Shown in pieces: positions 29,527 to 61,139 of a stretch of DNA of 64,000 bases. How positions within the stretch are numbered: the stretch's first letter is position 1; each line of letters opens with the position of its first letter. Under the pieces are notes generated by a model. The model searched no databases, had not been told where the DNA came from, and was given only the letters and a program-made list of their open reading frames with translations. A program made the translations under genes and the position numbers. The DNA is from Methylonatrum kenyense (GTDB lineage Bacteria > Pseudomonadota > Gammaproteobacteria > Nitrococcales > Aquisalimonadaceae), in NCBI RefSeq assembly GCF_023195885.1, contig NZ_JALPKO010000003.1:186001-250000 (forward strand). The letters are read 5' to 3'.

Positions 29527-30339
29527 CCTACCTCCCGTATTTACGCTTAACGGGTAACGGCCAAAGCGGACTCCGAGTCCGTCCGGGCTGTACCGAATAG
29601 ATTAGATCGGCAACGTCGAAAATGGCTGTCCGGCGCAAATATTCCGTCAGACTTTCTAGACAACGTTCCCTTTTAGCGCGCGCCAGTCTACACGATAGGA
29701 GGCGTTTTGCGGCAGTGCAACGTAACTGGTCCGAGAGTGGTACTAGCCGGCCGCGTCGGAACAGCTCCAGGCCCCGTGCCGCGTGAGGACAAGTTTTTTG
29801 CTGGCCTGACGAACTTTCGGTTCAACAGGTCCGGCAAAAATCTTCTCCTCCCCCGGCACTCAACGGCTCTCCGCGATGGCTCCCCAGGCACGACCGTCGA
29901 GCCAGTTAATCCTGGTTTCAACGAAGCAACAACATTTCCGGTTGGAAGGGACAGTGGAAGCTTTTTGCTGGCCCTGTTGGGCCCGAGGAAACACTGAGCA
30001 ATTCCCACGTTCGCGCTCGAGTCCGATTTCGGCAACCTGGCAAGGCGCGGTGCCGGTTCGGTAGCTCTAGGCTACCGGGCCGGTGGCGCAACACAGCCAG
30101 GGGCCGAAATCGGCCGAGCCCTTCGGGTTGGGCTGGCATTTTCCCCGATTGCGGCGTTGCGCTGCTTGGCCGCAGAGCGACTGCGGCACGGCGCTGCGCG
30201 CCTTGCCTCGGAAAAAATGTCAGCCCAACGCGAGCGCGGGAATTGCTCAGTGTTTCCTCCCAGCACGTCAGGCCAGCAAAAAACTTGCACTGGCCCCGAC
30301 GCCATCGGACCTTCACGTACCGACCCGAAAGGCAAGGGT
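29527..30339. other. Long gene-free region between acnA and hflD filled with repeats
   Basis: I find no gene in this 813-bp stretch. Positions 29527-29700 should hold the acnA promoter. From about 29789 to 30287 it consists of nested repeats: a GGAAAC-ended element at 29987-30257 and copies of AAGTTTTTTGCTGGCC at 29791 (plus), 29959 (plus, variant) and about 30286 (minus). Several open frames cross this area on both strands, but they follow the repeat palindromes and have no ribosome sites. Confidence 0.65.
29987..30257. mobile_element. MITE-like element, copy 1 (271 bp, terminal inverted repeats GGAAACACTGAGCAATTCCC)
   Basis: The ends GGAAACACTGAGCAATTCCC are perfect inverted repeats. The interior shares the GCAAGGCGCGGTGCCGGTTC segment, the CACAGCCAGGGGCC segment and the TGCCTCGGAAAAAAT segment with copy 3 near 60.8 kb, and part of these with copy 2 near 41.2 kb. 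It encodes no transposase, so it would be non-autonomous. Flanks (CCGA left, TCCC right) show no clear target duplication, which suggests an older insertion. It is embedded in a larger imperfect inverted repeat. Confidence 0.7.
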
Positions 30340-54371: not shown

Positions 54372-54687
54372 CGGGGAGTTACCTGTCCTGGCAACCTCCC
54401 GCCCTGCGATTCCTCAGCCCGCAGTATCCATGCCCTACCCGCGGCGCCAGGGCCGCTGCCTCTTTAGGTCGCGCCCTAGCCCATACTCGATACTGTAATT
54501 TTGTACAGTTACATTTAAATCATGAAAACGAGAGGTCAAGCGATTACGTGGCCCCAGTGCGAACCATGGTGTAAGTTCTTGGTTTTACGAACCATGTTGA
54601 TATTAAGGTGACATCAGGACCGCGGAGTTATCGAGAGGTCACGAATATGCAATATCGGGGAACGCGGTCTAATCACTGTTGGGTGTC
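54372..54687. other. AttI-like head of the cassette region
   Basis: This 316-bp stretch has no full-size gene. It holds a LexA box (54493-54508), a 29-codon ORF from 54522, a conserved GAGTTATC element, a 14-codon leader ORF with a hairpin (54647-54691) and the junction GTTGGGT at 54678. The order LexA box, short leader ORF, GTT junction, first cassette resembles the attI1 side of class 1 integrons, where PintI has a LexA box and ORF-11 precedes the first cassette. No integrase frame is found to the left. Confidence 0.55.
54493..54508. promoter_or_regulatory. LexA/SOS box
   Basis: CTGTAATTTTGTACAG is a perfect CTGT-N8-ACAG LexA site, with palindromic flanks TA..TT. It lies about 170 bp before the first cassette junction. 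Integron integrase genes usually carry such a box in their promoter; here no integrase remains, so it looks like a relic of PintI. Confidence 0.75.
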
Positions 54688-57374: not shown

Positions 57375-57884
57375 CCCGGCGGAAAACCGGTAGCCGTATG
57401 GACACCCATAACCGCGGGCGTGGACATCCAAAACCCGGCGCGGGCTGTTGGCTCTCGCAAAGGCCGGGTGAATCTGGCTGGCCGGGGTAAAGTCTGGGAC
57501 ACCCTCAGATTTTGGAGCTTGGTCCGGACTGGAGTGGAGAGTCGGACGCGCGGCTTGGCGGCTTTATGAGGTGCCTTCCAAGTGGTTATGCCGTCGACAA
57601 GGGGTGATTTGTGTGTGAGATTTCACCGGAAATCGCACTTTTTTTAAAGCCTTTGCTTCTTTCATTTTGTTTGGAGTGTGTTGTCTTTAGTAAAAGGAAA
57701 AAGTGATTCTGGCGTGTCATTGACAAGCGCGATGAGCCATTCCGATTCAGGAGCAATACCGTAAGTCTTTTTGTTTTATAGAGGGAAGTTTGGGGATATC
57801 TCGGATTTTATCGGCTAGTTGTTGCGACGTCCTCGTTTATTTTCGCGAGGTGACCCTGGCGGCGATTGAGTTATCGAGGGGCTC
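57375..57884. other. Gene-free stretch holding a degenerate copy of the interrupted 70-codon ORF
   Basis: From 57492 (GTCTGGGACACCC) to about 57785 this region is recognisably the same sequence as 60534-61100 without the GGAAAC element: TTTTGGAGCTTGGTCCG, CAAGGGGT, AAAGCCTTTGCTT, GTGTTGTCTTT, GGCGTGTCATTGACAAGCGCGATGAG and GAGCAATACCGT are shared. No intact gene is present. From 57785 to 57870 I see only AT-rich spacer before leader copy 2. Confidence 0.6.
57608..57780 (+). pseudogene. Degenerate paralogue of the 70-codon ORF (no insertion)
   Basis: Starting at the GTG before CEISPE the frame reads VCEISPEIALFLKP, gains stops (TGA, TAG) and has 1-nt and 2-nt deletions relative to the 60.65-kb ORF, yet keeps RVIDKRDEPF and RSNTVSLFVL. 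The GGAAAC element is absent here: TTTAGTAAAAGGAAAAAG lines up with TTTGGTTAAAGGAAAAAC around the other copy's insertion. This is a natural empty-site comparison. Confidence 0.6.
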
Positions 57885-58732: not shown

Positions 58733-58808
58733 TTCCCAGACTTCCGTTCCAATCTATGTCGGTATTACGGCGACAGGCAGATCGCGGAGTTATCTGGAGG
58801 TCACGAAT

Positions 58809-58844
58809 ATGCAATATCGCGGAACGCGGTCTAATTACTGGTAG
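58809..58844 (+). CDS. Leader ORF copy 3 (MQYRGTRSNYW)
   Basis: This 11-codon frame has GAGG at 58797-58800 and is identical to copy 1 for its first nine residues. Codons 3-7 hold the hairpin ATCGCG-GAA-CGCGGT (58816-58830). It ends beside GGTAGCC (58840-58846), which is one base from the GTTAGCC expected at the start of the next cassette. No in-phase coupling to the next gene is present here; that gene has its own weak AAGGAGAA site. Confidence 0.4.
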   Translation: MQYRGTRSNYW

Positions 58845-60070: not shown

Positions 60071-60520
60071 ATGGGCGTAACACTGAGGAGGATCACCCGG
60101 GAAAACTTCGAGGCGGTCATCGCGCTTGAGGTAGAGACGTCACAGCGTGGCTATGTCGCTGACAACGTGTACTCCATTGCTGAATCGAGCTTTCATCCGA
60201 CCTATCAGCCACGGGCTATCTGTTGCGGAGGAGAAGTCGTCGGCTTTCTCATGTACGAATGCTTTCATCAGGACGACCGGCCGCCTGCCTACAATATCTT
60301 CCGTCTCATGGTCGACCGACGGCACCAGGGAAGAGGCATAGGGTACAAGGCGATGCGGTGCCTGCTGGACGAGATCAGGGCACGCGGTCCCTTCGAGAGG
60401 ATTGCAATCTGCTACGTGCCCAGTAACCAGGTCGCTCGGGACTTCTACGCCAGTTTCGGTTTCCAGGAGACGACGCTGAATGAGGACACCGGAGAAGTCA
60501 TCGCGGAGATCCGAGGGTGA
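60071..60520 (+). CDS. GNAT family N-acetyltransferase
   Basis: This 149-residue enzyme has the GNAT fold: LRRITRENFEAVIALEV at the N-terminus, GGEVVGFLMYE (beta 2-3), the acetyl-CoA loop RRHQGRGIGYKAMR near residue 88 (Q/RxxGxG/A) and NQVARDFYASFGFQET. The opening QRGYVADNVYSIAES resembles diamine/spermidine acetyltransferases, but the substrate is not shown. GGGAGG lies upstream, right after the repeat GTCTAGGACACCC (60020-60032). Confidence 0.88.
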   Translation: MGVTLRRITRENFEAVIALEVETSQRGYVADNVYSIAESSFHPTYQPRAICCGGEVVGFLMYECFHQDDRPPAYNIFRLMVDRRHQGRGIGYKAMRCLLDEIRARGPFERIAICYVPSNQVARDFYASFGFQETTLNEDTGEVIAEIRG

Positions 60521-60652: not shown

Positions 60653-61139
60653 GTGTGCGAAGTTTCGCCGGAAAATGTGCCTCTGTTGAAAGCCTTTGCT
60701 TCCCTCATGCCGCTTGGCGGCGTGTTGTCTTTGGTTAAGGAAACACTGATCTATTCCCGCGTCTGCGCCCGAGACCGGTTTTGGTCATCTGGCAAGGCGC
60801 GGTGCCGGTTCGGTAGCCGTCGCTACCGGGCCGGTGACGCAACACAGCCAGGGGCCAAAACCGGCCGGGCCCTTCGGGTTGGGCCGCATTTTCCCCGAAT
60901 GCTGCGTTGCGCTGCTTGACCGCAGAATCACTGCGGCGCTGCGCAGCGCGCCGTGCCTCGGAAAAAATGCGAACTCCAACGCAGGCGCGCGAATAGATCA
61001 GTGTTTCCTTAAAGGAAAAACGTATTTCAGGCGTGTCATTGACAAGCGCGATGAGGCATTCGGGTTCTGGAGCAATACCGTCGGTCTTTTTGTTATAGGG
61101 ATATCGTGCTGGGTTGGGATGGTTCTTTGTCAGGCATGA
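60653..61139 (+). pseudogene. Small membrane-like ORF split by a MITE-like element
   Basis: The first part (60653-60738) reads VCEVSPENVPLLKAF.. and the second (61013-61139) reads GKTYFRRVIDKRDEAFGFW.. then GLFVIGISCWVGMVLCQA. Deleting 60739-61012 (the element plus one TTAA) joins them exactly in frame as 70 codons. AAGGGG before the GTG supports an expressed start. The C-terminus is hydrophobic, and the protein is unknown. A degenerate uninterrupted copy lies at about 57608. Confidence 0.65.
60739..61008. mobile_element. MITE-like element, copy 3 (270 bp) with TTAA target duplication
   Basis: The ends GGAAACACTGATCTATTC are matched on the opposite strand, extending with two mismatches to about 28 bp. 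TTAA flanks both sides (60735-60738, 61009-61012). The interior has paired GC-rich palindromes such as GCCAGGGGCC and TACCGGGCCGG. No transposase is encoded, so mobilisation would need an enzyme from elsewhere. It interrupts the 70-codon ORF. Confidence 0.82.

What the first reader, a model, noticed from the sequence alone, without database searches (positions are those of the whole stretch)
60653..61139. MITE-like insertion whose precise removal restores a 70-codon ORF
Element 60739-61008 has near-28-bp inverted ends and a TTAA duplication. Removing the element and one TTAA leaves 213 nt, exactly 71 codons with stop, joining VCEVSPEN.. to GKTYFRRVIDKRDE.. This directly shows insertion length, target and orientation. 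A relative of the same ORF without the element lies at about 57608-57780 and gives a natural empty site.
Basis: seen in the sequence. Interest (0 to 1): 0.75.

Follow-up and report, generated by a model that had tools for sequence, protein, structure and literature searches.

The report
High-copy MITE inserted at TTAA
A 270-base, gene-less jumping element, one of dozens in this soda-lake-type bacterium, really has inserted at a TTAA site here using ends that belong to the IS5 family; but the small protein gene it is said to have broken is not supported, and the surprising feature is that the two ends of each copy change together.

Summary
The insertion is real. 60739-61008 (270 bp) has perfect 18-bp inverted ends and sits between TTAA duplicates. 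It is one of at least 40 copies (mostly 85-97% identical) in the 2.95-Mb genome, with relatives across the family (congeners are Ectothiorhodospiraceae). Flanking duplications across copies are YTAR (TTAA, CTAG, CTAA), the target of the IS5 group. Complete 1,202-bp IS5 elements with the same ends and YTAR flanks exist in two other genera (G004, G011); the window's own genome keeps only a dead fragment. Orthologous empty sites for other copies occur in two congeners. So: a non-autonomous IS5-group MITE, moved in trans.

The ORF part is weak. Joining the flanks does give 70 codons, but shuffled flanks do so 27% of the time. No homologue was found, and the paralogue at 57.6 kb carries three single-base frameshifts. 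The paralogue is a good DNA-level empty site, not evidence for a protein. No allelic empty site for this copy was found.

Unexpected: each copy's two ends match each other far better than its nearest relatives' ends (0.9 versus 1.8 mismatches per 17 bp; 1.1 versus 2.8 in two congeners). This implies arm-to-arm copying, perhaps hairpin template switching. Variation shows no RNA-strand bias.

The parts
60735..60738 (.). left copy of the target-site duplication, TTAA
   Evidence: sequence; YTAR flanks across family
60739..61008 (+). MITE copy, 270 bp, no coding capacity
   Evidence: at least 40 places in own genome, alignment of 30 copies
60739..60756 (+). left terminal inverted repeat GGAAACACTGATCTATTC, 18 bp
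   Evidence: matches IS5-element ends
60767..60870 (+). internal hairpin 1 (predicted)
   Evidence: fold_alignment A2 columns 36-140
60878..60980 (+). internal hairpin 2 (predicted)
   Evidence: fold_alignment A2 columns 148-251
60991..61008 (-). right terminal inverted repeat, perfect complement of the left one
61009..61012 (.). right copy of the target-site duplication, TTAA
60539..61100 (+). host segment interrupted by the MITE; paralogous to 57498-57780
60653..61139 (+). the proposed interrupted 70-codon ORF (60653-60738 + 61013-61139); coding status unproven
57498..57780 (+). paralogous empty site; frame broken by three 1-base gaps relative to the joined ORF
29986..30258 (+). second, older MITE copy in the window, 85% identical, no matching duplication, ends match each other (GGAAACACTGAGCAATTC)

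Best explanation
60739-61008 is a non-autonomous miniature element (MITE) of the IS5 group of the IS5 family. A DDE transposase made by a full-length IS5-type element recognised the ~18-bp ends in trans and inserted the element into TTAA, one of its YTAR targets, duplicating those 4 bp (shown: ends, YTAR duplications, multicopy family, empty sites, full elements with the same ends in related genera; inferred: that this kind of transposase moved this copy). In this genome only a decayed transposase fragment was found, so the family is probably immobile now unless a transposase arrives. The site hit was a spacer-like segment present twice, 3.3 kb apart, in a repeat-rich island; it is not established that a gene was broken. 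After insertion, each copy's two ends keep copying each other, probably by template switching in the hairpin that the element forms when single-stranded (covariation shown, mechanism inferred).
For: Perfect ends and TTAA duplication. At least 40 places in own genome and 163 end-like sites at <=2 mismatches versus 0 for the reversed pattern. Thirty copies mean 91% identical; identical 4-bp flanks TTAA/CTAG/CTAA in about half, with one CTGG. Full 1,202-bp elements with the same ends in G004 (4 copies) and one in G011; three of the four G004 copies carry perfect YTAR duplications. Their transposase scores 340 bits to NF033581 IS5 family, cut-off 140, and hits DDE_Tnp_1 and DUF772. IS5 duplicates YTAR (PMC10359306). 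Dead fragment with one stop and a TTAG-flanked end in own genome. Orthologous empty sites for copies L006 and L012, and MITE-free collinear sites for L004 and L020. MITE relatives in all three congeners and other genera. Ends covary.
Against: The MITE shares only the terminal ~18-20 bp with the G004 element, so it is not a simple internal deletion of that element and its true parent is unseen. No intact IS5 transposase is in the assembled own genome, though repeats may fall in contig gaps. No orthologous empty site was found for this particular copy: flanking DNA is missing in congeners beyond the acetyltransferase gene. Arm copying is inferred from covariation, not observed.
Confidence: 0.9

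Rival explanations
1. One reading: the insertion disrupted a real 70-residue small membrane-protein gene, and the 57.6-kb copy is a paralogue of the same gene.
For: The joined frame is open for 70 codons. By eye, both copies keep a purine-rich CAAGGGGT motif just upstream of a GTG, and the predicted C-terminus is hydrophobic. Substitutions between the copies by codon position are 12/6/15, fewest at position 2.
Against: 27% of shuffles give as long a frame. Codon-position bias is not significant by my estimate (p about 0.15). Three frameshifts in the paralogue. No Pfam or NCBIfam hit. No homologue in 94 relatives, plasmids or genome contigs.
Confidence: 0.25
2. The element is kept as a structured RNA (processed or regulatory hairpin), and covarying ends reflect selection on base pairing in the RNA.
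For: Very stable predicted fold, -180.7 kcal/mol for the consensus; covarying end pairs 9 versus 2.1 in shuffles.
Against: At Watson-Crick stem pairs, changes to G-U (39 cells) and to A-C (34 cells) are about equal; RNA selection should favour G-U. Covariation is concentrated in the outer 17 bp and weak in the internal hairpins (3 pairs versus 0.9). No Rfam match.
Confidence: 0.1
3. Matched ends reflect selection by several transposase variants, each needing both ends to match its preference, rather than arm-to-arm copying.
For: IS copies in other genera carry different end variants, and some end haplotypes recur in congeners.
Against: The ends match the same copy's other end far better than the ends of the copies nearest by core (0.90 versus 1.83; 1.10 versus 2.80). 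Unique single-copy double changes occur (L006, L011, L029). Departures at arm-diagnostic sites are mostly to the other arm's base (28 of 37), just inside the 18-bp end.
Confidence: 0.3

Closest known systems
IS5 family, IS5 group (NF033581-type transposase)
   Same: End sequence begins GGAA; 4-bp YTAR duplications; full elements with the same ends encode a 327-aa DDE transposase of this family.
   Different: The MITE has no transposase and shares only the terminal ~18-20 bp with the complete element found.
Bacterial MITEs in general (reviewed in PMC10969869)
   Same: Short, non-coding, inverted ends, target duplication, many copies, stable predicted stem-loop.
   Different: 64% G+C in the element here, whereas the review describes MITEs as typically AT-rich; whole element is an imperfect palindrome made of two hairpins.
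Template-switch (quasipalindrome) mutation, e.g. PMC8794818, PMC7202029
   Same: Matched multi-base changes in two arms of an inverted repeat.
   Different: Described for RNA genes and reporter sites; here it is inferred across dozens of transposon copies.

Membership tests
MITE | short element without coding capacity | tested here: met
   270 bp; frames across it are mechanical, and copies carry indels
MITE | terminal inverted repeats and target-site duplication | tested here: met
   18-bp perfect ends, TTAA duplication
MITE | multicopy and dispersed | tested here: met
   >=40 places in own genome; present in 3/3 congeners
MITE | ends shared with an autonomous element | tested here: met
   1,202-bp elements in G004 and G011, but in other genera; only a relic in own genome
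MITE | empty sites show insertion as a unit | tested here: met
   L006 and L012 orthologous sites in G001/G002; paralogous site for the window copy
IS5 group (as partner) | YTAR target duplication | tested here: met
   TTAA, CTAG, CTAA in MITEs; TTAG, CTAA in full elements
IS5 group (as partner) | IS5-family DDE transposase | tested here: met
   NF033581 340 bits, PF01609, PF05598
IS5 group (as partner) | transposase acts on these MITE ends | not testable with these tools
   needs a mobilisation assay
protein-coding gene at 60653-61139 | frame conserved in homologues | tested here: not met
   only relative is frameshifted; no other homologue

The most novel reading that the evidence does not exclude
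The two ends of these bacterial MITEs undergo continual arm-to-arm copying after insertion (template switching in the element's own hairpin), so that each copy carries its own matched pair of end sequences; this would keep both transposase-binding ends functional together and explain how MITEs stay mobile while drifting.
Probability: 0.5. Interest if true: 0.5.

Novelty: new member of a known kind. Interest (0 to 1): 0.33.

Why it matters
A well-sampled, high-copy IS5-group MITE family with partner elements and empty sites is useful but ordinary. The within-copy matching of the ends, seen independently in own genome and in two congeners, offers a natural data set for testing template-switch copying between inverted-repeat arms in bacteria, and cautions that covarying stems in such repeats need not mean a functional RNA.

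Tried and rejected
PF01609 and DUF772 in own genome: no family-level hit. ORF homologues: Pfam, NCBIfam, plasmids, 94 relatives and genome contigs gave nothing; four weak hits were unrelated frames. Rfam on 53-64 kb: nothing. Viral contigs with a MITE core pattern: none. RNA-selection reading rejected by the G-U/A-C balance. Orthologous empty site for the window copy in congeners: flank absent. Several G005/G008 contigs end shortly after a MITE-type end, as if a collapsed full element broke the assembly, so no full element could be read there.

Full report
Observation. The window holds TTAA / 270 bp / TTAA at 60735-61012. The first 22 bases and the last 22 (reverse strand) are identical, TTAAGGAAACACTGATCTATTC, with no chance match expected; the arms extend to 48 nt at 81% complementarity. 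The element is 64% G+C, the flanks 50%.

Family. Searching the whole genome (2.95 Mb, 29 contigs) gave at least 40 places for the element, the limit of what was scored, and 163 copies of the end sequence at up to two mismatches against none for the reversed control. Some end pairs lie only 58-178 bp apart, so shorter versions exist. Thirty full copies average 91% identity. Their 4-bp flanks are mostly TTAA, CTAG or CTAA, with one CTGG, and about half of the copies have identical flanks: the YTAR rule of IS5 (PMC10359306). The family is present in all three congeners, at about 70% identity in further genera, and its ends occur in other genera of the same family.

Partner. No intact DDE_Tnp_1 or DUF772 gene was found in the assembled own genome. 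In G004 four, and in G011 one, 1,202-bp elements carry GGAAACGCTGATTTATTC-type ends. Three of the four in G004 have perfect YTAR duplications; the fourth and the G011 copy have unequal but YTAR flanks. The 327-aa transposase is IS5 family with DDE_Tnp_1 and DUF772 domains, and relatives at up to 73% identity are on many plasmids. Own genome retains a fragment (47 aa, 55% identity, one stop) about 120 bp from a TTAG-flanked end. The MITE and the full element share only the terminal ~18-20 bp, so the MITE is matched to this IS by ends and target, not by descent of its interior.

Empty sites. For the window copy, the paralogue at 57498-57780 runs through the junction without a gap, TTAA against TAAA. 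It is 3.3 kb away and a paralogue, not an allele. In the congener G001 only the neighbouring acetyltransferase gene matches, not the flank. For other copies, six joined flanks were searched in three congeners. L006 and L012 show orthologous sequence running through the junction with the TSD counted once (TTAA against TTCA in L006), with small indels nearby; L004 and L020 are collinear and MITE-free with small local gaps; at L013 the matches on either side stop short of resolving the junction.

The ORF. The joined frame exists: VCEVSPENVPLLKAFASLMPLGGVLSLVKGKTYFRRVIDKRDEAFGFWSNTVGLFVIGISCWVGMVLCQA. But 27% of dinucleotide-preserving shuffles of the same flanks give a frame at least as long across the junction on that strand, 41% on either strand, and the minus strand of the joined flanks holds a longer one of 88 codons. 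The relative has single-base gaps at ORF positions 32, 65 and 94. No homologue was found. In favour: a conserved purine-rich stretch before the GTG in both copies, and fewest substitutions at codon position 2 (12/6/15; not significant). A small gene in the ancestor is possible but unproven, so 'restores an ORF' should not be stated as a result.

Covarying ends. Within the 17 aligned end positions, the left and right ends of the same copy differ by 0.90 on average. Ends dealt at random differ by 1.93 (0 of 20,000 permutations as low). Left end against the right end of the three copies nearest by core differs by 1.83, and left against left of those copies by 1.81. In 39 copies from two congeners the values are 1.10, 3.19, 2.80 and 2.85. 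Nine end pairs show changes on both sides against 2.1 in shuffles; internal hairpins show 3 against 0.9. Just inside, at three positions where the left and right consensus differ, 28 of 37 departures are to the other arm's base; at two of the three positions that is also the transition, so this count is only supportive. Shared descent alone does not explain ends that agree with each other better than with the same end of close relatives. Changes from a Watson-Crick pair go to G-U 39 times and to A-C 34 times, so RNA-level selection is not indicated. Template switching between arms of an inverted repeat is a known mutational route (PMC8794818, PMC7202029); selection by transposase variants is the main alternative. 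The literature searches were few, so whether this has been described for a bacterial MITE is not settled.

Verdict. An ordinary but well-documented IS5-group MITE insertion; the ORF claim is not supported; the within-copy matching of ends is the part worth a specialist's time.

Noticed in passing
window 56711, 57485, 57956, 58651, 60013, 60526 (+) and about 58726 (-): A REP-like repeat, (A)GTCTGGGACACCC(A/T)CAGATTTT, lies between the genes of this island, sometimes as inverted pairs; six matches at <=2 mismatches versus 0.02 expected.
   Followed up: partly
window 54585-54678 and 58747-58840: A 94-nt direct repeat, 82% identical, at two intergenic places of the same island.
   Followed up: no
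G038, G034, G004, G010 (e.g. L052, L053, L055, L056): About 55 nt from the MITE's second hairpin (positions 170-224) recur alone in other genera at 78-82% identity, 12 matches in G038: the core seems to be shared with another repeat family.
   Followed up: no
own genome, e.g. G000:C7:27001-27058, C24:6120-6177, C12:146171-146343: End pairs only 58-178 bp apart: shorter palindromic versions of the element with the same ends.
   Followed up: no
G001:C127:93956-94503 and G000:C23:310440-310781: Neighbouring MITE copies that share a boundary, as if one inserted at the other's duplication.
   Followed up: no
G001:C11:10513-10968 (L113): The acetyltransferase gene 60071-60520 has an 83% homologue in a congener whose similarity stops at the gene's borders, as if the gene moved as a unit.
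   Followed up: no
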